From the NCBI RefSeq assembly GCF_021134715.1, contig NC_060024.1, positions 3,596,001-3,660,000 of the forward strand: DNA of 64,000 bases. Reading direction: 5' to 3'. Each line of letters opens with the position of its first letter. The stretch's first letter is position 1. Below are positions 37,291-56,537 of this stretch, piece by piece. The DNA is from Daphnia pulex (lineage: Eukaryota > Arthropoda > Branchiopoda > Diplostraca > Daphniidae). The position numbers and the translations under genes are program-made. The notes beneath the pieces were generated by a model, which was not told where the DNA came from, did no database searches, and saw only the letters and a list, made by a program, of their open reading frames with translations.

Positions 37291-37893
37291 TGGTGGCGGG
37301 GCACCTAATATTTCCATTGTAGCTCCATTAAGACTCCATTCCACGACTTTTTGGTGTACTCTTTGATGGGAGTAGGCAATGATGAGAGTTTTTAGGTGGC
37401 GATTTAGTTCTAGAATCACGGAATTGCGAGTCTCTCACTGTTAAAAAAACTCACCGATTTTCGAAGAAATTTCCACCTATATGTGACTCTGCCATGTAGG
37501 TTTTTTTTTTCACCAGAAAATAACTTTGGGGGTACCAATATCGGTGATCGGTTATCAACTGATAACACCTAATATCGGTGAAAAAAAACCCGGAATTAGA
37601 ACAAAAATTTCCCTGAAAAAAGCACCAAACGACCCGTTATTAAGGTTGCTTGGTTTATAGCCTCTAAATAAATTTTATCAAATAATCGCATAAAATTGAG
37701 CTAAAACAATGATCTTTTATTAAGCAAGAAACTAAGAACTATAATTCTTGGTCAACAGGGGGCTGGTGGGTTGGGTGAACAACAAAACAAAATGTTCAAA
37801 GAGACACAAATATTGAAATAACAATCAGAATTAAACTTCTATGAAGAATGAAACATTTAATTGGTGGATGATCATTTGTTGTCGGATGAAATC

Positions 37894-37899
37894 TTTATT
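37894..37899 (-). terminator. Poly(A) signal of the mini-exon gene
   Basis: AATAAA on the minus strand, about 60 nt downstream of the predicted stop at 37,961. This is the expected spacing and supports the minus-strand reading. Confidence 0.5.
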
Positions 37900-37960
37900 T
37901 TTTTCAATCTAGGCAGAGAAGGTATGAAAGTGGGCACACAATTCAGTTGTGTGGCCCTTT

Positions 37961-38976
37961 TTAGGAGAAGTACAAGTGCAGCCCTAGAACCAAGTTGTTA
38001 AAAAAAATGATTATAGTTTGGGAATTGCGATTGTCAAATAAGCATTTGTTTACCTGGGGTCATTGTCTTAAACATGTCAGATGATAAGATAGAGTTAACG
38101 TTCTTCTTTCCAGTGGTTTTGGCTGCCTCAATTATATATTTGGCTGATGCAGACAAGATATCTTGGAAGCTCACATCGGTCTCTAAAAAGAAAAGTGAAA
38201 ACATTCATATATCACACTCAAGAACACATCGTAGAAATTATTACCCTCTGAAGTAGCAAAAAGTAACATGTTGGATCTTGAAGGCATCACATCGGTCTCT
38301 GAAAAGAAAATTGGAAACATTCAGACCACATTCATAAACCCATTGCATAAAATCTTACCCTCTGAAGTAGCAACAACTAACATGTTGGTTCTTGAAGGCA
38401 TCACATCGGTCTCGAAAAAGAAAATTGCAAACATTCAGACAACATTCAAGAACACATAATAGAAATTCTTACCCTCTGAATTATCAACAACTACATGTTG
38501 GATGTTGAAGGCATACCTTCGGTATCTGAAAAGAAAAGTGGAAACATTCAGATCACATTCATGAACCCATTGTATAAAATCTTACCCTCTGAAGTAGGAA
38601 CAACTATCATGTTGGGTCTTGAAGGCATCACATCGGTCTCTGAAAAGAAAAAGGAATACATTCAGCTATCACGTTCAAGAACATATCGTAGAAATTCTTA
38701 CCCTCTGAAGTAGACATATTGGATCTTGAAGGGATCAAATTGGTCTCTGAAAAGAAAAGTGAAATCCTTAATACATCACATTCAAGTACACATTGTGGAA
38801 ATTCTTACCCTCTGAAGTAGCAACAATTAACATGTAGTTTCTTGAAGGCATCGCATCGGTCTCTAAAAAGAAAATTGCAAACATTCATACCAAATTCATG
38901 AACTCATCGTTAAAAATGTTACCCTCTGAAGAATCAACTACTATAATGCTGGATCTTGAAGGGATCATAACGGTCT
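37961..38976 (-). CDS. Tandem mini-exon gene encoding an 18-residue repeat (3' part)
   Basis: Minus-strand exons: 38,976-38,923, 38,862-38,809, 38,746-38,702 (45 nt), 38,639-38,586, 38,525-38,473 (broken), 38,412-38,359, 38,298-38,245, then 38,182-38,054 (129 nt) and 37,983-37,961 (stop). The unit exons are 54 nt, about 114 bp apart, with acceptor TTTTCAG|AGACC and donor GAGG|GTAAGA; every intron is phase 1, so exons can be added or skipped without a frame change. Each unit encodes a variant of ETDVMPSRTNMLVVATS. The 129-nt exon reads TDVSFQDILSASAKYIIEAA... and ends TMTPG; the last exon adds LHLYFS. AATAAA on the minus strand (37,899-37,894) lies about 60 nt past the stop. The unit at 38,525 has a 1-nt deletion and a stop, and the unit at 38,412 has lost its AG, so some exons are probably skipped or the gene is decaying. 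The family is not recognised. The 5' part is not resolved (BEL insertion upstream). Confidence 0.6.
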
Positions 38977-39203
38977 CTAAAAAGAAAAGTGTTGGACAAA
39001 ATGTTAGACCGTTCTCAAATATGCATGAAAAGTTTATAATACATATCACTTATTATTATAACATCATCATCAAGTAAAGATAGTGTTTTCTTGGTTTCGA
39101 ATGAACAATTTAATGATGGAACCGGACTTAACTGGTGAATCATCACCACCAACAACCCAGATACCCTGCTTATATTTACTTTCTCTTTTAATTACTGAGT
39201 CAC

Positions 39204-39425
39204 TGTAAAATACGCCGTTTGCTTGGACAATAGCGATGATGAATAATAACCGACACGGGTTGAAGAGGCAGAATTTCCAGGTTTTATTTCTTGACCAAAA
39301 GACACTCACGAAAATTACACACACTTGACTTTTCTCCTTTTGCACGTGAATGAATCCTCGGCCGTCGTCTGCTCTCTCTCTTCCTTTTCGCCCGCCTGTG
39401 CGCCTCCTGGTGACGGTTCACCACA
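39204..39425 (-). repeat. BEL/Pao 3' LTR
   Basis: 222 bp. Read on the plus strand it starts TGTAAAATACGCCG and ends CACCACA, so the minus-strand LTR is bounded by TG...CA. It matches the other LTR except for one missing T in the CTTTTCTCC run. Only 23 bp separate it from the stop codon of the polyprotein; the polypurine tract there is poor. Confidence 0.95.
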
Positions 39426-39448
39426 GTCCGGGCCGGCCAAAGACGGAA

Positions 39449-42400
39449 TCACTCGAACGAAACGCGAGAACCTGAAATGAAACAAAGTTTGACAACCGGC
39501 CGGGTTAGTTCGGAACGCTCAGTCTTCACGGTTGCCGCACGGACAACTCCGTCACTGCCGGGCAACACTTTAGTAACGCTCCCTATCAGCCAATCGCCTC
39601 TTCTACTATTTTCATCCATAATCATGACGACATCGCCAACTCTGATCGGACGGACTGTTTTTTCCCACTTTTTCCGCTCGATGAGAGTCGGGAGGTATTC
39701 CTTCATCCAGCGTCTCCAGTACTGGTCCACAATGAACTGGGCCTGCTTCCATTTCCGCCGCGTGAGGCCATCAAATGCCTCTTCGGTATCAGGCGCTCGG
39801 TGAGGATGGGGGCTGCCGAGAATAAAGTGATAGGGAGTGAGCGGCTCCGGTTCTGACGGATCAGTTTGGACGTTGGTCAAAGGCCGTGAATTTAGAAGTG
39901 AGGCCACTTCTGCAAAAACCGTGCGCAGGACTTCGTCGGTTACTGAGCGGCTTTCTAACACGGCGCGCATGGCTCTCTTGCTAGAGCCAATCAAACGCTC
40001 CCAAATACCACCAAAATGCGGCGCAGACGGTGGGGAGAACTTCCAAGTGATCCCGCGGTCAATAAATTCTGCTGCCACTCGCGTCGAGTTGAGGTTTTCA
40101 ATCCCAAGCCTGAGTTCCTTTTCTCCGGCCGTGATGTTGGTGCCATTGTCACTATAAATTACCTTGGGGTGACCACGCAAGGAGATGAATCGCCGCAACG
40201 CCATGATGAACGAATCGGCGTCCATCGTGTCCAACACTTCTAAATGTACGGCTCGGGTGGAAAGGCACGTTATCAGTAGTCCCCACCGTTTCACTGATCG
40301 TCTTCCAATCACAACTTGAAAGGGCCCGAAGCAGTCGAGTCCCACATTCGTGAATACGCGCAAGAAGGGCACAAGACGTTCCTTTGGCAAGCTAGCCATT
40401 CGTGGTGCCTGAGGCATAGCACGCAGCATCTTACACTTGGTACACTGTGCAAGTGTACGCCGGATGGCCCTGCGTCCTTGTGGGAGGTAAAACTGCTCAC
40501 GAACAACACTCAACGTATGTTCCACACCAGAATGGAGCAATTGTAGATGACGGTCGCTGATGATAAGCCTTGTAAGCGGATGATCCGGAGCAATTATAAT
40601 TGGGTTACAGGTATGTGCCGGCAGCATTGCGTGGCCCAATCTTCCATCGACTTTCAACAGGCCGTCGTCTGGGTCGAGGTATGGCCCGACCCGCCTCAAG
40701 ACGGAGTCGCGGGGGATCGTTTTTCCTTTCTGAAGAGCTGTACGTTCCCGTGAGAATGCGTCATGCTGAGACACTAGCAGACAGATGCGGAAGGCTTCAG
40801 CGATCTCGTCGGAATTCAGATCATCTTTCGACGTGGAGTCACCGCGTAGCAGCAGAGCAGCTTCTCGTTTCAGAGTGTTAAGTTGAATGCTTCGGCTGAT
40901 GAGTTTAGACAAAGCGGATGACAACGGGTGGCAAGAACTTATAGCAACGTGCAGCTGTTGCACATTGACCGCCTGTATTTCTTCGTTTTCTTTAGTCTTA
41001 ATGCTTTGCTGATCGAATGGCGGCGGAGTGTAGGACACGTTGAAAAGAATATCTGGTCCTCGAATCCAGCGGCAATCTGGCCCAAAGTCTTTCGGAACGA
41101 TTCCTCTGGTACAATCGTCGGCGGGATTGTCGTTGCTGCGAATGTAGTGCCATTGATCAACCGTCGAGTGCTGTAGAATCTCATTTGTGCGTTTGGTTAC
41201 AAATGACGGGCGACCGGGGTGAGAGGCACGAAGCTGATACAAAACAATTTGTGAGTCCGTATGAAACTCAACTGAGGAAAATGAAAGTCGAAGCTCCTGT
41301 TTCACGATCAACGACAGGTTGACGGCCAATACTGCCGCTTTCAACTCCAGTCGGGGAATGGTAGTCGGCTTGAGCCCCGCCAGGCGACCTTTGGCCATGA
41401 CGAAGCTGACATGAATTTTATCACCGAATCGTACGCGCAGGTAAGCGACCGCTCCGAAGGCGACGGGCGAAGCATCGGCGAAAATGACCAACACAAAATC
41501 GGAGCCTGCGAGGGGAAAGTCGGCGGGTCGGAAGCATCGTTTTACAGAAACAAGGCGCAATTTTTCCAGGCTGGAGGTCCATTGCTTCCACTTTGACAAA
41601 ATTTCGATTGGCAAAGGCTGGTCCCACCCACGAACATCCGGTTTAGCTTTTGCTAGCTTTTGTGTCTGCTGAAATAACAGTTTAGCGCCAGTGATGGCCG
41701 GAAGACAAATGCCGAGAGGGTCGAACGTGAGAGAAATTGCGGACAATAATTCTCGTTTTGTAGTAACCGTTGGCATTGATTTCATCCTGATGCCATAAGA
41801 GTCCGAGTTAAGATCCCACACCATACCGAGAAGATATTCCACTGGAAGCGCGTCTTTATTCAAATCAACGGTGTGCGACGTTCGTTGATTTTCTGGGATG
41901 GTTGCCAAGACTTGCCGGGATGACGACGCAAAGCTTGTCAGACTAAAACCGGCGGACGCGAGAGACTGCGTTACTTGTTTCGCGAATTTTATTGCTTCGT
42001 CGGTAGTTTCGAATGAGTCGCTCAAATTGTCGGAATAAAAATTGTCTTTTAATTTATCGGCGACTTGCGGAAATTGTACGTTTGCGTTGACTGCATGCTG
42101 TAAAGTAAATATCGCGGCAGAGGAGGAACAAACAGCTCCAAAAAATAGAGTTGCGAATTGGTAGGTTTTGATCGGTGCGTTACTGCCGAATTCGCGGTAG
42201 ACAAATCGTTGTAAGGACTGATGTTTTTCGGCCACACCAACTCTGTGGTAAAACGCAGTGATGTCAGCGGTGAGTGCGACGAGAAACTGACGAGTGCGGA
42301 GGAGGATGCCGACTAGCGATGGGATGAACGGCGGGCCACGCAAAAGAAAATGGTTGAGCGACACACCTCTGTAAAGCGCAGCGCAGTCGAAGACAACTCG

Positions 42401-45172
42401 AATTTTTTCTGGCTTGTTCGGGTTAACGACGTAGAAGTGAGGTAGGTACCAAACCATACCTTCCGGCTTGTTTATGTCCGACCAGTTGACAGCGACCACG
42501 GTTCCTGACGATATAAGATTCTCGACAATGGTTACGTATTTTGCGGCGGTTTCGCGCATATTTGGCTCTAACATTCGGCGCTCGAGGCCACAGAAACGGG
42601 AAATTGCTTGTCCTCTGTTGTTTGGTATGACCGGTCTGTCTTGGCGGAGCGGAAGTTCTATTTGGTAACCACATCCAATAAATTTTATCGATCGCTGTAA
42701 GATGCTCAACATCTGCTCATCTTCGTTGGACGCTGGAGTTGTTTTCGCGGTTTTCGATACGACGCCGAAGGTTTCAGTTGAATGGAAACGGTTAACTACT
42801 TCTGATAGAAAGGGTTCACGTCGGACGAAACCTAAGTTCACGCTGCTTTTGTTGCTCGGTCCGGCAACTAGACACAACGGTATTTTTCCCACTACAGCCC
42901 AGCCGAAACACGTTTGCAAAGCGGTAGGGCCGGTTTCACCATCATTTGGGGCAGCAGTGTTTAGCGTTCGAAGAGCTGGTAACATGTCCATTCCCACAAG
43001 AATTTCTACTTCGGAAGAGTCTATTGCAGGTAAGTCGATGTCGGCCAAATGTTCCCATCGTTTCTTGATGCCAGGCCAGTTAATTTTGCGTTGCGAAAGA
43101 TTTATGCTGGGGACAACAAACGCTTCGCGAACGTCGAACGCTTGCGATCCGTCGATCGATTTGAGTTTAAAAGCTACGATGTTCGAATCCATTAACACTG
43201 AGTTGTTAAACGAGCCGAAGCAAATGCTGGCCGAAGGACCTTTCAATTTTAACGAATCCGCTAGCTTTCGCGATATGAGAGTAGCTTCGCTGCCTTGGTC
43301 GAGAATGGCAAAGGTTGTTTGCGCCGAATTGTTCACTTCCACTATGAGCTTGACAATAGCTAATAGGACTGGGCGGATATTGGCTGTTGGGGCTCTAACC
43401 ATTAATACAGCGGGGTTTTTACCTTGATTTCGCGATGAGGCGGGAAACTGTCGTTCGGCTCCGTGAAGTAGCGAATGATGAGGGCCCTGGCACTCCTTGC
43501 ATTTCGACTCGGTTGAGTCGCATTTCCGTCCATAGTGGCCGCGGACGAGACATTTGAAGCAGTGGTTGTTGGTGGCACACAGTGATGCGCGGGCATTCAC
43601 CAACATTCGTTTAAACACGTTGCACATCTCTAACCTGTGGGCCGGACTTTCTTTGCAGGCTGGGCAGTCAGAAAGGGTGGTAATGTTTGATGCGAGGACG
43701 GTCGGTCCGCGGCTATTGTAGTTGCTGCTTCCGGGTGTGTAGCTGCCCAACTGTCGGTTGCTATTTGATGGCTGAATTGGGTTTTTGACAGCGTTCGTTG
43801 GGTTGGATGACGACAGCTTTCCGCCACGAAGTTCTTCTGCGCTGAGCACGCGATCGATCCATTTGTCGAAATCTTTTAAGGTGGCCATTCTGTCTAAACC
43901 ATAAGCATATTTTCCCCAGTCTGTTTGCAAGTTGATCGGCAATTTGGTATGAAGTAAGTTGGCGACGGTGTTGAACATCATGACATGGCTTTCGTCTACG
44001 CTTGACACGGCGTCGCGTACCGCAGCGGCCAAATTAAAGAGTGCGTTAAAGTCGCCGTTCCTGAATGACGGGAGCTGCTGCATATGTTGATCGTGGGCTT
44101 GGATGATAAGGTGCTGGCTTCCATATTTTTTTTCTAGCTCGGCCCATGCCGATTGAAAAGTGTACGCACCCGTGAAAATATGAGCGACACGACGTTGGAT
44201 GTCTTCTTTCAAACTTTCTTGAAGCCCCAGAAGTTTCAGCGATTCGGGCATATTTACGTCTCGGATCGTTGCTTTTATTCCGTGGGCGTATTTCAGCCAT
44301 GTACGGGGGTCTCCATTGAACTTTGCCACGTCTAGTTTCGGCCAATGATGCGACGGGGCAAAATTAGGTTGCGTCGGTGGAGTCGAGTTAACGGTAGCTG
44401 GCAGCAGCGGAATGTTAGCCAAATCATTCATCGGCACGTTGCTTGGTAACTTGGGCGTGGACGCAAATTGCGGTGATCCAATTGCACCACCACAGCTCTC
44501 GATCAAGTGATTTTCGTACTGAATTTCAAGCTCCAGGTCTTCTCGTTCGCGCGCGTTCTTGAGCTCTAGATCTTTGAGTTCGCGATCTTGTTTAATTTTT
44601 GCTTGCTTCAACCGAAATTCAAGATCGATCTTGCGTTTCTTAGCTGCTGAGTGAAAGTCGAAATCTACGGGACTTAAGTTGTCGTGCTGCGTGTCGTTCG
44701 ATTGATCGTCTTGGCCCGGCTGTGGCGGGTTGTTTGGCTGTTGCGGTTCTTGTTCGACGTTGTTCACAGCGTTTAGTTGCTGATGCTCAGGTTGAGGAAT
44801 TGGCACATTCTGGTTGGGTTCACGGACCACGGTGTCGGAAATGTTCCACGCGCGACGAGGGGCTGTTCTTCGTAAGGCGGCAGCGACTGCTTGAACACAC
44901 GCGGTTTGCAGATTGTTGATCCCTTCTAAGTAGGTGGCTGCTGCGTGCTGTTCATCATCGTCAAGTTGTGCGGCGGCCACGTATCGTTCGTGGATGTGAA
45001 CGAGATTAGCGTGCGCCAGTTCGAGAGTTGGCATGAAGGCTTCGAATTCTTCCCGCGTGGCGTTGATGTTCATCAACTCTCTTGCTTGCCGCAGAAGGTT
45101 CGTGTGTCTACGCTTGGCATTTGTTCGCATGCCGAATAGGACGGGCGGGTCGACAACGTCTTCGTCAGCCAT
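39449..45172 (-). CDS. BEL/Pao Gag-Pol polyprotein
   Basis: 1,907 aa, uninterrupted. The order is typical of BEL/Pao. A Gag region is followed by Cys/His zinc knuckles at about 510-580 (CFKCLVRGHYGRKC), then an aspartic protease-like motif near 624 (DQGSEATLI, which differs from the common D-S/T-G). Reverse transcriptase spans about 880-1,150, with the first catalytic Asp in ADITAFYHRV near 972 and the second motif reading YSDNLSDS near 1,047 in place of YVDD. RNase H is at about 1,230-1,360 (FADASP, RLELKAA, HTDSQIVL). The integrase HHCC zinc motif is at about 1,550-1,580 (HLQLLHSG...CTKC), followed by the DDE core: Asp in GLDCFGPF near 1,612, Asp in YSDNGTN near 1,673, Glu in GGIWERL near 1,724. 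A BEL-type C-terminal integrase tail (DVVMIMDENSRRGDW) closes the protein. The start ATG gives MADEDVVDPP. It would form virus-like particles and copy and integrate the element. The altered RT motif is the main oddity. Confidence 0.97.
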   Translation of the reverse strand: MADEDVVDPPVLFGMRTNAKRRHTNLLRQARELMNINATREEFEAFMPTLELAHANLVHIHERYVAAAQLDDDEQHAAATYLEGINNLQTACVQAVAAALRRTAPRRAWNISDTVVREPNQNVPIPQPEHQQLNAVNNVEQEPQQPNNPPQPGQDDQSNDTQHDNLSPVDFDFHSAAKKRKIDLEFRLKQAKIKQDRELKDLELKNAREREDLELEIQYENHLIESCGGAIGSPQFASTPKLPSNVPMNDLANIPLLPATVNSTPPTQPNFAPSHHWPKLDVAKFNGDPRTWLKYAHGIKATIRDVNMPESLKLLGLQESLKEDIQRRVAHIFTGAYTFQSAWAELEKKYGSQHLIIQAHDQHMQQLPSFRNGDFNALFNLAAAVRDAVSSVDESHVMMFNTVANLLHTKLPINLQTDWGKYAYGLDRMATLKDFDKWIDRVLSAEELRGGKLSSSNPTNAVKNPIQPSNSNRQLGSYTPGSSNYNSRGPTVLASNITTLSDCPACKESPAHRLEMCNVFKRMLVNARASLCATNNHCFKCLVRGHYGRKCDSTESKCKECQGPHHSLLHGAERQFPASSRNQGKNPAVLMVRAPTANIRPVLLAIVKLIVEVNNSAQTTFAILDQGSEATLISRKLADSLKLKGPSASICFGSFNNSVLMDSNIVAFKLKSIDGSQAFDVREAFVVPSINLSQRKINWPGIKKRWEHLADIDLPAIDSSEVEILVGMDMLPALRTLNTAAPNDGETGPTALQTCFGWAVVGKIPLCLVAGPSNKSSVNLGFVRREPFLSEVVNRFHSTETFGVVSKTAKTTPASNEDEQMLSILQRSIKFIGCGYQIELPLRQDRPVIPNNRGQAISRFCGLERRMLEPNMRETAAKYVTIVENLISSGTVVAVNWSDINKPEGMVWYLPHFYVVNPNKPEKIRVVFDCAALYRGVSLNHFLLRGPPFIPSLVGILLRTRQFLVALTADITAFYHRVGVAEKHQSLQRFVYREFGSNAPIKTYQFATLFFGAVCSSSAAIFTLQHAVNANVQFPQVADKLKDNFYSDNLSDSFETTDEAIKFAKQVTQSLASAGFSLTSFASSSRQVLATIPENQRTSHTVDLNKDALPVEYLLGMVWDLNSDSYGIRMKSMPTVTTKRELLSAISLTFDPLGICLPAITGAKLLFQQTQKLAKAKPDVRGWDQPLPIEILSKWKQWTSSLEKLRLVSVKRCFRPADFPLAGSDFVLVIFADASPVAFGAVAYLRVRFGDKIHVSFVMAKGRLAGLKPTTIPRLELKAAVLAVNLSLIVKQELRLSFSSVEFHTDSQIVLYQLRASHPGRPSFVTKRTNEILQHSTVDQWHYIRSNDNPADDCTRGIVPKDFGPDCRWIRGPDILFNVSYTPPPFDQQSIKTKENEEIQAVNVQQLHVAISSCHPLSSALSKLISRSIQLNTLKREAALLLRGDSTSKDDLNSDEIAEAFRICLLVSQHDAFSRERTALQKGKTIPRDSVLRRVGPYLDPDDGLLKVDGRLGHAMLPAHTCNPIIIAPDHPLTRLIISDRHLQLLHSGVEHTLSVVREQFYLPQGRRAIRRTLAQCTKCKMLRAMPQAPRMASLPKERLVPFLRVFTNVGLDCFGPFQVVIGRRSVKRWGLLITCLSTRAVHLEVLDTMDADSFIMALRRFISLRGHPKVIYSDNGTNITAGEKELRLGIENLNSTRVAAEFIDRGITWKFSPPSAPHFGGIWERLIGSSKRAMRAVLESRSVTDEVLRTVFAEVASLLNSRPLTNVQTDPSEPEPLTPYHFILGSPHPHRAPDTEEAFDGLTRRKWKQAQFIVDQYWRRWMKEYLPTLIERKKWEKTVRPIRVGDVVMIMDENSRRGDWLIGSVTKVLPGSDGVVRAATVKTERSELTRPVVKLCFISGSRVSFE

Positions 45173-46103
45173 GCTTCGATTAGGCCGTAAGCTTGCTCGA
45201 TGGTTCGATTGTGGGTACGAGATAAGCGTGAAAGGTTTGCAACCGAATCAAATGTCTAAACCTGTACGAAGGAGAATAGTTGAGTGGATGTTCGAATTAA
45301 TGAATTATGGTAATAAATACCCAAAGAGTTCGAATAGGGAAACAATATTATTGGGAATGATCAGAAAGTTGTTCGGTGGTAGAGTTCTGATTTAACTTGG
45401 TCCTTTATTTGTGGCGTCTGTAACGAAAGCGACTTGTTATTAGGGTAATGGGAACGTAAAGTTTTAATTAAACCTACGAGACACTGTAAGCAGTGCAGTT
45501 CGAGATCGATGCTGCACGGATTTTTACAACACGGTTTTCTTCGTTTGTAGTTCGTCAAAGGTTTCGAATAGGTGGCGACACTGGCGACAAGACTAATAGC
45601 TGACCAGGCCACTAAGTCTATGATAAGCAAAGTACAATTAGTCTATATGGTCTAAATTATTGAAACAGTGTTAAATAAATACTTAAGTTGTTCGGGACAA
45701 AGATTACGGGTATACAAGTTCGATAATGAGTGGTCAGTTCGAGAAATCTGTAAACGCAAAAAATTGATTATTGACTTTCATTCTTGTTGGAGGTTATAGC
45801 ATAGAACAACTGGAAAATCAATTTCACGAGACAAAGATTGGGATGGAAGTTTCGATCAAGGCGTAAAGCATGCTCGGTGACAACGATATTGTGCGAAAAA
45901 CTGAGATCGAATTAGTTCGAAACGTAGGGGTTCGATGTTCGTCGTGTTTTGCTTTGTTCGAGAGAGAATATGTTCGAGTTCGTTCGAGTCCGTTTAAATT
46001 GTCGAGATGTTAAAGAAAAACTTACATGTTGGCTGCACAGAAAAAAAAATGGCCGCCACACGCCTTCGACAGACTTCGATAGGCTTCCTGAATTATTCGT
46101 AAT

Positions 46104-46118
46104 CGGGTTTCGGCACCA
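46104..46118 (-). promoter_or_regulatory. Primer-binding site of the BEL element (tRNA-Phe)
   Basis: The plus strand reads CGGGTTTCGGCACCA immediately before the LTR. That equals the 3' end of animal tRNA-Phe including CCA, so the minus strand is complementary to the tRNA primer. No gap separates it from the LTR. Confidence 0.9.
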
Positions 46119-46341
46119 TGTAAAATACGCCGTTTGCTTGGACAATAGCGATGATGAATAATAACCGACACGGGTTGAAGAGGCAGAATTTCCAGGTTTT
46201 ATTTCTTGACCAAAAGACACTCACGAAAATTACACACACTTGACTTTTTCTCCTTTTGCACGTGAATGAATCCTCGGCCGTCGTCTGCTCTCTCTCTTCC
46301 TTTTCGCCCGCCTGTGCGCCTCCTGGTGACGGTTCACCACA
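46119..46341 (-). repeat. BEL/Pao 5' LTR
   Basis: 223 bp, identical to the 3' LTR except for one extra T. It is followed by the TSD copy GTCAC at 46,342-46,346. Confidence 0.95.
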
Positions 46342-46346
46342 GTCAC

Positions 46347-47880
46347 AATCCTTAAACAAATTTTTGCTCTTTCACTCTCCCATGATGTTAACATCAAATT
46401 AGAATAAATATTAACTCTAGAAAATGAAAGACCTTACTTGTCTTTGGAAACAAAAACTTGTAGTTACGAGACTGGCAGACTCCGAACGATTCGACGAAGA
46501 AAAATAATCAGAACTATGTTGCCACATCACCGAGAACTATAACCTCAAATTTGAAAATTATTGAAGGTGTAAAAAACCCCGGTATTTGGTGGCATCAGTA
46601 AAACTGTCCAGTGTGGAAACCCCATTATATGGTAGTTTACCCCGAAATTTTTTTTCGGTGGAAAAGTCACCTTTTTTTAATTCGATGAAAATTCTCGTTT
46701 TTAGGTAGAAATACCGATTTAAGGGGAGGTAAATAACCGAAAAAAGTCAAGATTTTTAACAGTGCTGGGGTAATATCAACGTAATTTAGGCGTCATTCGG
46801 CTCTGAGAAGTTGAACGGAATGAGCTTTCGTAGAGAACAGTTATTTTGATACACTTTCCTGTGGAAATGGGGCATATTCTTGAGAGTATGATTCGTTCGT
46901 AGGTGTTATCGGCAGGTACGGAATTGGTTCTACAATTACATGTCCCACAATTTTTTTTTCTTTTTTTGTACAAGATTCGATTTCGTTGGTTCAGAGCGGC
47001 AATAGCTCTGCTTCTCCTGTTTTTCGAGATAAAGATTCCTTTAAAAATGCTGCCCCAGTTAACCGTTGAGATAAATATACTAACTTGGAAGGGGGCATTC
47101 CCCTCGTGCAGTCGTCGGCGGGATATTTTTATCCAGACATGCATTTTAATTTAATGTGCCGTCTGTGAATATCGGAGCTTTTGCAAACGTGGTACGAGAC
47201 AAAGCTGGAATAGTTGCAATGGGAGGAATGAATTCAGCAGTGATGTGGCGTTAGTAGTCTTCTCAAAAGATAAAGTTATTTTTTAAGTTAACGATGCTCG
47301 ATTAAAATGGGTCCGTTTACGCAAGTTTGACGTTAGTTAGTGTTCACCGCTTGTTATTTTTGGGAGGGATATTTCCCAAGGAAATTACGGTCTCCGTCGC
47401 TTTGATTAAAGATCTTCCTTGTGCAATACATTGAATAAAATTAGAGAAGGAGTGAAAATAAATTAGACTTAAACACCATATGAGGAAACAGTTAGGAAGA
47501 ACATAAATGGGAGGGAACTTTAAATTTTCAAATTCGTGCCTTGACAAATTCAAGAAGTCTAAAAGATCAACTTCAATATTGGGGCGATGAAATTGAGTTC
47601 TGTTCCAAGACCGGTATAGCTTGAACTCCCAGAAAATGCTGAGAACAAGCGAAATGGAAATTCATTTGAAAAAACTGGTTTTATGTCTATTGCTTCAGTT
47701 AATCACTTTTTTTTAAGAGAGAAAATCGAATATACTAGCAGACAGCGTTTAATGGTCGTACCGGAGCTATAGAGTAGGTGAGCCCTGGGCAATGTGGGGA
47801 AATTTTGTTTTACGCTGCTCATTTTTTTAAGGAGAATAAGAAAAAAGTAAAAGTATATGAGTGATTCCCTGGCATTTATT
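46347..47880. other. Flank of the BEL insertion; no complete gene
   Basis: On the minus strand, CAAAGACAA|GTAAGG (donor at about 46,437) ends an open stretch that could be an upstream exon of the mini-exon gene, but its acceptor is not found. TTTCTAG|AGTTAAT at about 46,420 is a possible acceptor. The segment 47,765-47,880 is a repeat shared with 5,640-5,760. The ORF shadows at 46,776-47,553 show no domains. Confidence 0.35.
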
Positions 47881-50731: not shown

Positions 50732-53700
50732 TTAGAGCAGGAAGGATTCTCTTTCTTTTAAGATTTGATGGATCTAAATCCGTTAGAAAATAATGGAATG
50801 GAAGCTAAGAGAAAAAAGTGAGCCAGTCGCCCCACTCTCTCCTACGAGGTAACAATTTTCGGTAATATCAATTTACCAAAAATCAAAGCCTTTTTTAACA
50901 GTGTAGGGGATACTGGAGTAACACGGGACAGTTTTCTTTTTCCTCGCATATCTCCCAGAATTTAATCACCCTATTTTATTTTTTTTACATTTTTATGTAT
51001 TTCACATTCAAAGGTACCCCTTATATATTTTATTTAATTTTAGAGTAAACCGTTTACCCGTAGGAGACGGCTAAAGTTTTCAAAAATTTGTGGGAGGAAC
51101 CTATTTTGAGGGGTAAGTGAGGACACTAGGGAGGGTAGGGTGGGACGTTTGCTTTATAAGCCTTAAAATTTGTTAAAAATTTAAAAAAAAAATTAATCGT
51201 GTTCCCCTACATCGATTCTACATGTCTTTAAAAAAAATTAATGAATTATTGTGTAAATTGAAATTTGCATTTTATGAAAAAATAGCTTAGCTCCGCCCTC
51301 AAATCTTTCTGCCCTTCTAAACTGCAGTAAAATTTGCTGTCCAAAATTTCCCAAAAGCTCTCTTTTTTAAATGTCTATATTTCCTAAAATAATGGGTCTG
51401 AAATTCCAATTTTTTTTGTAAACGATAAAGAAATGAACGATTTTCTATCCATGTAAATAAAGTATGCATTTTTTGTATTTTTGCCGTAAAACCTTATATG
51501 GCGGCGAAAAATTTTACAAGCGAAAACCCGTTTTTTTATTTTGTCAATAACTCCTACAGTTGCATATTATGCGGAATGTGGTAATATTAACTGGCAATTA
51601 TGTCAAACACAAATATGAAATGACTGTGGTGATGCGAATGCTTTCAACAAATTGTTTCTTTTAGTTTATCATGTTTGCTGGATCTTATTCTCTTGTACTG
51701 TTCGTTCTTGTGTGTTTGGTCTTGATTAACTCCTTGTTGAGTCTTTTCTTTATCTTGGTCTTTTGTCTATTACTTGTTGGTCATACTCAATATCGAGCTC
51801 TCCAATTTTTCCTGCAGAACTGTTAAAATTATTCAAACTGCTAATTGTGTTTGGTTTAATACATAGTTAAATGATACTTATCACTTTGTTGGTTAATAAC
51901 ACATCATGCTCTTCTCCAAATGATTGCTGACAAATTGATCTTGAACGTTCACTTTCTTTACTGATATACATTAGTCTGGACAAGAGGAGTTACAAATGGA
52001 CTTGATCTTACTATTACGAAATCCTTCATTCTTTTTTCACTAGCACATTTACATCTCTAGGCTCAGTTGTTCTTGCAGCACACTTTTAGCTACTGATTTT
52101 AAAAAGTTTTTGTCGTTCATTCTGGGTTGTTAACACCAACTGTCATGGAGAAACTCGTTGTTTTTTTTGGCCGTGAGAGAAGCAGTGCAATGAAGGAAGG
52201 GGAAGCCCACTGACCAATCAGAATATCGGAGGGTGCATCGCGCCTTACAAAAAAGTGCATCGCGCTGATCGCGCTGTAGGCTACCATTGCTCAGAAATCA
52301 CCACAAAGCGTCTCTGAGAGCCGTCGCGATGATCGATATCTAGTTAACATTCCTTCTAATTTTTGAAGACTAAATTATGTTTCGCATATGTCATGTTTAT
52401 TTAATGTAAAGCGCAGTTTTTTTGTAATTGTATAAAAGACAATTAATTAATTTTAAAAAGTAATATTGTGAGTTTAATAAATCAGGTATATTACTCTACA
52501 TTGTGGCTGCGAGTTTACAGATTTCGTTTAGAACGCTGTCCGACAACGAACTGAACTCACTATATAATATATTTAGTTGATGAGACAAGGCATGCATCTA
52601 GTACAGTACCCTTTTATTCTTTTCGGTTTAAGAATTTTTGAATACGTCGGTTAGAAAATAGACAGCCAGGAAGAAATACTATTTTAAAAAAATAATCTTG
52701 AATGCAGCAACACGCTTTATCAAATTATACTAGTAATCTTGTGCCAGTTGTAAGCTAACGTAACGGAAACATAAGAATTTGGTTTGTTAATGATTTTCCA
52801 AGGCAACGTGGATTCGTGTTTTTCGTAAGCGATTTGGTCTTTTACTTTTCCAGACGTTCGAGATTACTTCGAAAATAGACCCATAACTTATCCTAACCTA
52901 ACCTAACCTATCCTTACCTAACCTAACCAAAGTTAGTGGCAGTTATTGGTTTTTATTTATGGAGTGGTCGATGTTGCAACTTTTGAAGCGGGCTCCACTC
53001 TTTAGCCGCGAGGATCTCCAGCACTCCTCTCGCGGCTTTGTATGTATGTATCCTCGCTACATCCGTTCCGCTTCCGCTTGTATCGGCAAAGTTAGTGGCA
53101 GTTAGTATTTTTTTCAGAGTGGTCGATGTTGCAATTTTGGAGTTGCTGAATTTTTTTTCATTATGAAACAGAGTGATTCAATTATTTCCCCACCCATTTT
53201 ACATCTTGCATGTTAATCTTATCGACTCCTTTTCATTCTCATTCTCCTTTTGCCAGTTATATTTTTGTTTGCCATAGACGGCAGACGAGGGACAGGCAAA
53301 CAGAACCCTAAGACAGAAGGACTACTTTTTATAAACCTTCAAAGCGGCCTTATTTCTCCATGATAGAGAGCTTATTGAAACAGAAATAGACGGGTTTCTT
53401 CGTTCACCGTGACCTTTTATATACTTTGCCTAGCTCAAACCAAGATGAGTGAAATTCACACATTGCCTGCTTGTTATTTATAAGTTAGTTGGGCGATTCC
53501 CGCCTTTATTATTTCATGATTATATTCCTCTTGGTTTTTACCATGAAGTTAATTTTTTACAAATGTCGTTTTCACTTCACAGCTCTCGTAAATTTTAAAA
53601 ATTAACAAATTTCCGTGCTTCGCCATTTTTTTTATATTTTTCTCCCCTGTTGACATCTTGCCCGTCAATCTCATTTGTTACCTTATTAATTTTCTTCTTG

Positions 53701-55843: not shown

Positions 55844-56537
55844 AATACTTTGATTAAATTGTTTTAAAAATTAAAATGTAATGGAAAATCTGATATGGTT
55901 TGTGCGGTTTGCGAAAATTATTAAAGACTAGCTTCTGATGTCACTCTAAAATGGACGGTAAGTCGGTAATTTGTAATTTGTTGCATGGAAACTGTTAAGA
56001 AAGATAGTAATTGCAAGGCGGTGTGGGGTAGCGGGAACTGCGCCCCCGCTGCACCTAAGCCGCACTTGCACTCTTGTTCAAAATGGGGCTACTTAGCACT
56101 ACTCATAAGATGCGAAACGGAAAGCGCAACTTATAAGTTGAGAAACGCTTCTTACATAGTAACCTTCGCAACCAACAATCACTAGTACACAATACTTTGA
56201 TTAAATTGTTTTAAAAATTAAAATGTAATGGAAAATCTGATATGGTTTGTGCGGTTTGCGAAAATTATTAAAGACTAGCTTCTGATGTCACTCTAAAATG
56301 GACGGTAAGTCGGTAATTTGTAATTTGTTGCATGGAAACTGTTAAGAAAGATAGTAATTGCAAGGCGGTGTGGGGTAGCGGGAACTGCGCCCCCGCTGCA
56401 CCTAAGCCGCACTTGCACTCTTGTTCAAAATGGGGCTACTTAGCACTACTCATAAGATGCGAAACGGAAAGCGCAACTTATAAGTTGAGAAACGCTTCTT
56501 ACATAGTAACCTTCGCAACCAACAATCACTAGTACAC
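55844..56537 (+). repeat. Perfect 347-bp tandem duplication
   Basis: Unit 1 is 55,844-56,190 and unit 2 is 56,191-56,537. They appear identical base for base, including the 66-codon ORF carried in each (55,985-56,185; 56,332-56,532). Each unit contains GCGCCCCCGCTGCACCTAAG, similar to the boundary at 55,740. The ORF has no recognisable domain and is not called as a gene. Confidence 0.9.

What the first reader, a model, noticed from the sequence alone, without database searches (positions are those of the whole stretch)
37961..38976. Tandem array of 54-nt phase-symmetric mini-exons encoding an 18-residue repeat
Seven units spaced 107-116 bp each carry a full acceptor (TTTTCAG|AGACC) and donor (GAGG|GTAAGA) on the minus strand, around 54 nt that encode variants of ETDVMPSRTNMLVVATS. 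Introns are all phase 1, so units can be gained, lost or skipped without a frame change. One unit is 9 nt shorter, keeping the frame. One unit has a frameshift and one has lost its AG. A longer terminal exon in the same phase and a poly(A) signal follow. This looks like a gene that varies its length by exon duplication. I recognise no family.
Basis: partly seen in the sequence, partly recalled or inferred. Interest (0 to 1): 0.8.

Follow-up and report, generated by a model that had tools for sequence, protein, structure and literature searches.

The report
Mini-exon array in a decayed transposon
In the water flea Daphnia pulex, a neat row of seven near-identical mini-exons turns out to sit inside an old, broken jumping-gene copy that carries part of an unnamed gene, so it is more likely a genomic relic than a working gene that tunes its own length.

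Summary
On the minus strand, 38976-38245, seven units each carry a 45-54 nt phase-1 exon reading variants of ETDVMPSRTNMLVVATSE. Seven of seven donors are GT, six of seven acceptors AG, and a 129-nt exon in the same phase follows.

The interpretation changes. The assembly (133.19 Mb) fits Daphnia pulex KAP4. The array lies inside a DNA transposon with CACTGTTAAAAA ends (window 46764 and 37436, 2-bp duplication AG, about 2.19 kb without its insert). A young BEL/Pao-like element (LTRs 99.6% identical) has since split it. Three related places on C8 carry 5 complete, 2 and 1 units; copies on C8 and C5 end at the same terminal base. Downstream exons belong to an unnamed Daphnia gene family, also present in D. 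magna.

This copy is broken: an insertion in its 5' part, one lost acceptor, one frameshift with stop, 376 bp of downstream exons missing. Codon positions show no purifying selection (1/2/3: 0.20/0.15/0.11; pN/pS about 3, excess not significant). Unit order and number differ between copies.

Best reading: tandem exon duplication inside a transposon-borne gene, now decayed. Splicing and expression could not be tested.

The parts
38245..38976 (-). Seven tandem units with phase-1 mini-exons: 38976-38923, 38862-38809, 38746-38702, 38639-38586, 38525-38473 (frameshift and stop), 38412-38359 (acceptor AG lost), 38298-38245
38054..38182 (-). 129-nt exon in the same phase (ETDVSFQDIL...), start of the downstream domain; not truly terminal
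   Evidence: aligned with D. pulex P0001 (78% over 49 aa) and D. magna P0007 (53% over 38 aa)
37961..37963 (-). Place where 376 bp present in the related copy L005 (7305-7680, downstream exons) is missing
37436..39203 (-). 3' (right) part of the CACTG-ended DNA transposon; terminus TTTTTTTAACAGTG at 37436, flank AG
   Evidence: copies L005, L006 and C5:4198088 stop at the same base
46342..46764 (-). 5' (left) part of the same DNA transposon; terminus CACTGTTAAAAATC at 46764, flank AG
39127..39165 (-). Remnant of an upstream exon reading GIWVVGGDDSPVK, alike to WVVIGDDSPVK in the longer relative L043
   Evidence: read by eye; L006 frame; L043 frame
39204..46341 (-). BEL/Pao-like LTR element inserted in the DNA transposon; target duplication GTCAC at 39199-39203 and 46342-46346

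Best explanation
The array is the middle of a decayed copy of a CACTG-ended, CACTA-like DNA transposon of Daphnia pulex that carries part of a multi-exon gene. In an ancestral copy a stretch made of one short phase-1 exon plus its intron was tandemly duplicated just upstream of the exon SFQD...; the shared first 12 nt suggest that this exon's start was part of the seed. Each unit had its own acceptor and donor and a length divisible by three, so extra units could be spliced in without breaking the frame, and copies of the transposon came to differ in unit number and order by unequal exchange or slippage. This copy then decayed: one acceptor mutated, one unit frameshifted, 376 bp of downstream exons went missing, and an LTR element inserted upstream. 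Shown: the sequence, the termini, the target duplications, the related copies, the lesions and the differing unit orders. Inferred: splicing in the ancestor, the seed, the direction of change, and present lack of function.
For: Termini CACTGTTAAAAA at 46764 and 37436 with AG on both sides. Copies L005, L006 and C5:4198088 stop at exactly window base 37436. L006 is complete end to end (2253 bp, duplication CA). LTR element with GTCAC on both sides splits the 5' part, and its joined flanks match L007 at 92% over 387 bp. Lesions in this copy. No purifying-type codon bias: 0.20/0.15/0.11 at positions 1/2/3 (permutation P 0.22); 129-nt exon window against L005 pN 0.079, pS 0.036. Unit tree groups L005 u1 with u4, L005 u2 with u5, window u4 with u6, so units turned over within copies. 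The only gene model with the units, P0001, begins at an ATG in an intron of L005.
Against: Exons (0.153) and splice signals (0.116) are less diverged than intron cores (0.247; exon against intron P 0.06), and the 129-nt exon is less diverged than the 3' region (9 of 130 against 51 of 339, gaps counted, P 0.02), so some constraint may have acted. 11 of the 12 units in the alignment stay open. L054, a third complete element of this family, has no target duplication. No transposase was tied to these ends.
Confidence: 0.8

Rival explanations
1. Working host or domesticated gene: the locus is transcribed and splices the mini-exons into a protein of variable length, and the transposon ends and the LTR element are tolerated.
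For: Splice dinucleotides kept at 7 of 7 donors and 6 of 7 acceptors; frame open in 6 of 7 window units; a D. pulex gene model (P0001) spans the related copy.
Against: LTR element in the 5' part, missing downstream exons, no purifying codon bias, P0001 starts inside an intron. Expression not tested.
Confidence: 0.07
2. Non-coding minisatellite: the 114-bp unit multiplied as plain DNA, and the exon-like features are only what the seed happened to contain; the units were never spliced into a protein.
For: Whole units, introns included, are 72-94% alike; no codon-position bias.
Against: Intron cores diverge more than exons and splice signals (P 0.06); units keep phase 1, and the one length change between open exons is 9 nt.
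Confidence: 0.13
3. On the origin of the cargo, compatible with the main reading: the gene is the transposon's own long-term gene rather than a recently captured host gene.
For: L016 (C8:8.60 Mb), 50-55% identical over 56-58 residues, also has a CACTGTTAAAAA end about 520 bp downstream of its domain. P0010 joins an N-terminal gene part to the transposon's 3' region. The D. magna relatives come from contigs of 699 and 1044 bases.
Against: Of 11 loci with weaker relatives (L043-L053) scanned for exact CA[CG]TGTTAAAA ends, 10 had none in their 9.9 kb and L053 had one end only. No left end was found for L016 (one search lists no convincing one).
Confidence: 0.4

Closest known systems
Animal CACTA-related DNA transposons (SmTRC1 of Schistosoma mansoni, PMC1636069; CACTA families of D. 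pulex, PMC2884549; passages of both seen)
   Same: Short terminal inverted repeats beginning CACT, 2-bp target duplications (SmTRC1: 7 of 14 copies); CACTA families are already reported from D. pulex.
   Different: No Transposase_21 in this element; SmTRC1 ends begin CCC, these begin CACTG; an exon array is not mentioned in the passages seen.
Micro-exon genes (MEGs) of schistosomes (PMC4350168, passages seen)
   Same: Very small symmetrical exons that could be gained, lost or skipped without a frame change.
   Different: MEGs are expressed, secreted or gland-associated genes; here one exon type is tandemly repeated inside a broken transposon copy, with no evidence of expression.
Unnamed Daphnia proteins P0001 (DAPPUDRAFT_317855), P0002 (DAPPUDRAFT_331237), P0007 and P0009 (D. 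magna APZ42_003918, APZ42_001214)
   Same: Share the downstream domain; P0001 also holds two repeat units.
   Different: The D. magna proteins as given show no ETDVMPS repeat. No Pfam family above cut-off. A likeness to fish 'SAMD3-like' proteins is recall only and was not tested.

Membership tests
CACTA (En/Spm) superfamily | Terminal inverted repeats beginning CACTA or CACTG | tested here: met
   CACTGTTAAAAA at both ends
CACTA (En/Spm) superfamily | Target duplication of 2-3 bp | tested here: met
   2 bp in 2 of 3 complete copies of this family (window AG, L006 CA; not L054), and in 3 of 3 copies of another family with the same 12-bp ends
CACTA (En/Spm) superfamily | Transposase_21 (PF02992) in the element or in an autonomous partner with the same ends | tested here: not met
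   3 places in the genome, none inside the window element; none of the 85 end-pattern hits lies near them. Hence 'CACTA-like', not filed as a member
BEL/Pao LTR retrotransposons (the insert) | Near-identical LTRs and 5-bp target duplication | tested here: met
   99.6% LTR identity, GTCAC on both sides
BEL/Pao LTR retrotransposons (the insert) | Reverse transcriptase and integrase of the BEL/Pao type | tested here: inconclusive
   DUF5641 and Integrase_H2C2 above cut-off; rve and RVT_1 match but below cut-off; that DUF5641 marks BEL/Pao is recall
Micro-exon genes | Most of the coding region in tiny symmetrical exons | tested here: met
   Seven phase-1 exons of 45-54 nt; holds for this fragment only
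Micro-exon genes | Expressed, alternatively spliced transcripts | not testable with these tools
   No RNA data on hand

The most novel reading that the evidence does not exclude
Intact copies of this transposon in other Daphnia genomes express a protein whose linker is built from a variable number of 18-residue exons under diversifying selection, so that a mobile element keeps reshaping its own cargo protein by exon gain and loss. The pooled pN/pS near 3 among units and the differing unit orders do not exclude this.
Probability: 0.07. Interest if true: 0.65.

Novelty: new variant of a known kind. Interest (0 to 1): 0.3.

Why it matters
Repeat arrays inside transposons are common (recall), but an array whose units are complete phase-symmetric exons with their own splice sites is a small natural record of how tandem exon duplication begins. 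It also shows how an automatic gene model (here P0001) can turn such a relic into a predicted protein. If living copies exist, they would give a short-term system for watching exon gain and loss between copies of one element.

Tried and rejected
Rejected: a host gene with chance TIR-like flanks, because three other copies stop at the same terminal base and complete copies show target duplications. Rejected: P0001 as evidence of expression, because it begins in an intron of L005. Seed of the unit: beyond about the first 12 shared nt the likeness to the following exon is no better than shuffles (P 0.25), so the seed is only suggested.

Led nowhere: Pfam for the cargo protein (nothing above cut-off); viral-contig scans for the unit and for P0001 (nothing); a search with hand-joined open frames of L043 (6273 candidates, none at E 0.001); ARAGORN on L055-L057 (none). 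Paper searches about the array or its kind: no paper; no paper; I saw only the listings and, for PMC2884549, PMC1636069 and PMC4350168, passages; nothing in what I saw describes this array. Searches were for KAP4 and for micro-exon genes. Passages of PMC12926508, PMC12102780 and PMC13322756 were seen for KAP4.

Limits of the counts: the unit alignment used 12 of 15 complete units (L006 and L007 left out as decayed or cut); the pN/pS count used 10 of these 12 (window u3 and u5 left out for length); units are not independent. The inward-pair script was given 47 of the 85 end-pattern hits (contigs C3 and C8); I looked through the other 38 by eye and saw no further pair under 3 kb. The element length printed (2193) keeps the second target copy and two LTR bases; by coordinates it is 2186.

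Full report
What was checked. The minus strand was read directly and the exons measured. Seven units with exons of 54, 54, 45, 54, 53, 54 and 54 nt and introns of 60 or 62 nt precede a 129-nt exon. Seven of seven donors are GT; six of seven unit acceptors are AG. Five units encode full 18-residue variants of ETDVMPSRTNMLVVATSE, u3 is 9 nt shorter and open, u5 has lost a base and reads a stop. TRF finds the array without help (period 114, score 936).

Where it is. The window lies in a genome of 133,188,837 bases in 13 contigs. D. pulex is given as 133.2 Mb in PMC12926508, which uses KAP4 (passages), and the two nearest named proteins are D. pulex models. I take the species to be D. pulex, probably KAP4; 12 chromosomes plus mitochondrion is recall.

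Mobile DNA on both sides. Just upstream lies an LTR element, 39204-46341, with 99.6% identical LTRs, GTCAC on both sides (positions 39199-39203 and 46342-46346), one open frame of 1907 aa, and DUF5641 and an integrase zinc-binding domain above Pfam cut-offs (integrase core and reverse transcriptase match below theirs). I read it as BEL/Pao-like. Its two flanks set side by side match L007 continuously over 387 bp at 92%, so it split an existing sequence. That sequence ends at window 46764 in CACTGTTAAAAATC and at 37436 in TTTTTTTAACAGTG, with AG on both sides. Without the insert and one target copy it is 2186 bp by coordinates.

Other copies. The array occurs in three other places in this genome, all on C8 (a lower bound by the tool's own words): L005, with 5 complete units plus the end of one cut off by other sequence (83%); L006, with 2 decayed units, complete from end to end (2253 bp, duplication CA; pieces 68-76% identical to the window); and L007, with 1 unit, cut. 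L005, L006 and a C5 copy that holds only the 3' part (L042, 84.7% over 404 bp) stop at exactly the window's terminal base. L054, an 876-bp element, shares both end regions (71% over 158 bp and 78% over 92 bp) and has no array; its alignment runs 7 bases past the terminus and it shows no target duplication. So 2 of 3 complete copies of this family have a 2-bp duplication. A different family with the same 12-bp ends (L055-L057, 951-953 bp, 96% alike) has CT, TC and TG. The 13-base end pattern occurs 85 times in the genome against 45 for its reversed control; 7 inward-facing pairs lie under 3 kb apart, against about 0.04 expected (script on 47 of 85 hits, the rest by eye). Two-base duplications are reported for the CACTA-related SmTRC1 in 7 of 14 copies (PMC1636069, passages). 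The three Transposase_21 places in the genome lie elsewhere. I therefore call the element CACTA-like and do not file it.

The gene inside. L005 continues past the 129-nt exon into further exons. Their protein is related to D. pulex P0001 and P0002, to D. magna P0007 and P0009 (63% and 59% over half of P0002), and to unnamed fragments. No Pfam family scores above cut-off. In the window 376 bp of this part is missing; as D. magna and D. pulex proteins share it, this is a loss here, not a gain in L005. A remnant reading GIWVVGGDDSPVK precedes the array (39165-39127, by eye). An open frame in L043 has WVVIGDDSPVK and, further on, a relative of the same downstream domain (35% over 72 aa), so the element seems to hold a shortened version of a longer gene. 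P0002's N-terminal part has no close match in this genome (best 41%, on C12). The D. magna proteins show no repeat, so the array may have arisen in the D. pulex lineage; this rests on two short proteins. Whether the gene is the transposon's own or was captured is open: L016 speaks for the first, the lack of both ends at L043-L053 against.

Selection and turnover. Across 12 units (7 window, 5 L005) mean pairwise divergence is 0.153 in exons, 0.247 in intron cores and 0.116 in splice signals (exon against intron P 0.06). Codon positions 1, 2 and 3 give 0.20, 0.15 and 0.11, the reverse of purifying selection but not significant (two-sided permutation P 0.22). Derived states are 5 synonymous, 32 replacing and 0 stop, out of 38, 115 and 9 possible (Fisher P 0.08). 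Pooled pN/pS is 2.95 over 10 of the 12 units; the 129-nt exon between window and L005 gives pN 0.079 and pS 0.036. So no constraint on the protein is visible. Against that, exons and splice signals are somewhat less diverged than introns, and the 129-nt exon less than the 3' region (9 of 130 against 51 of 339, gaps counted, P 0.02), which allows a spliced past. In the unit tree L005 u1 and u4 group with window u2, L005 u2 with u5, window u4 with u6, window u5 with L005 u3 (supports 0.65-0.84 for these groups where given), so units were duplicated or lost after the copies parted.

Verdict. It is best read as tandem exon duplication inside a transposon-borne gene that has since decayed, not as a working length-varying gene. 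Splicing and expression remain untested.

Noticed in passing
39204-46341, minus strand: LTR element with near-identical LTRs and one open frame of 1907 aa, so a recent insertion.
   Followed up: partly
window 50903 and L008:163-173: A second CACTGTTAAAAA end in the window; the same end with the same flanking letters occurs about 13 kb on, at C8:3660172, which suggests a local segmental duplication.
   Followed up: no
55844-56537: A 347-bp stretch repeated in tandem with 100% matches: very recent duplication or an assembly effect.
   Followed up: no
52884-52928: Short TAACC array inside the chromosome; the arthropod telomere repeat TTAGG is recall.
   Followed up: no
G000 contig C8: 33 of the 85 CACTGTTAAAAAW ends lie on C8, which is 14.2 of 133.2 Mb; about 9 would be expected by length.
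   Followed up: no
L055, L056, L057: Three 951-953 bp elements with the same 12-bp ends hold a stretch like the 5' half of a tRNA (GTAGCTCAGTGGTAGAGC, likeness by recall); ARAGORN calls no tRNA there.
   Followed up: partly
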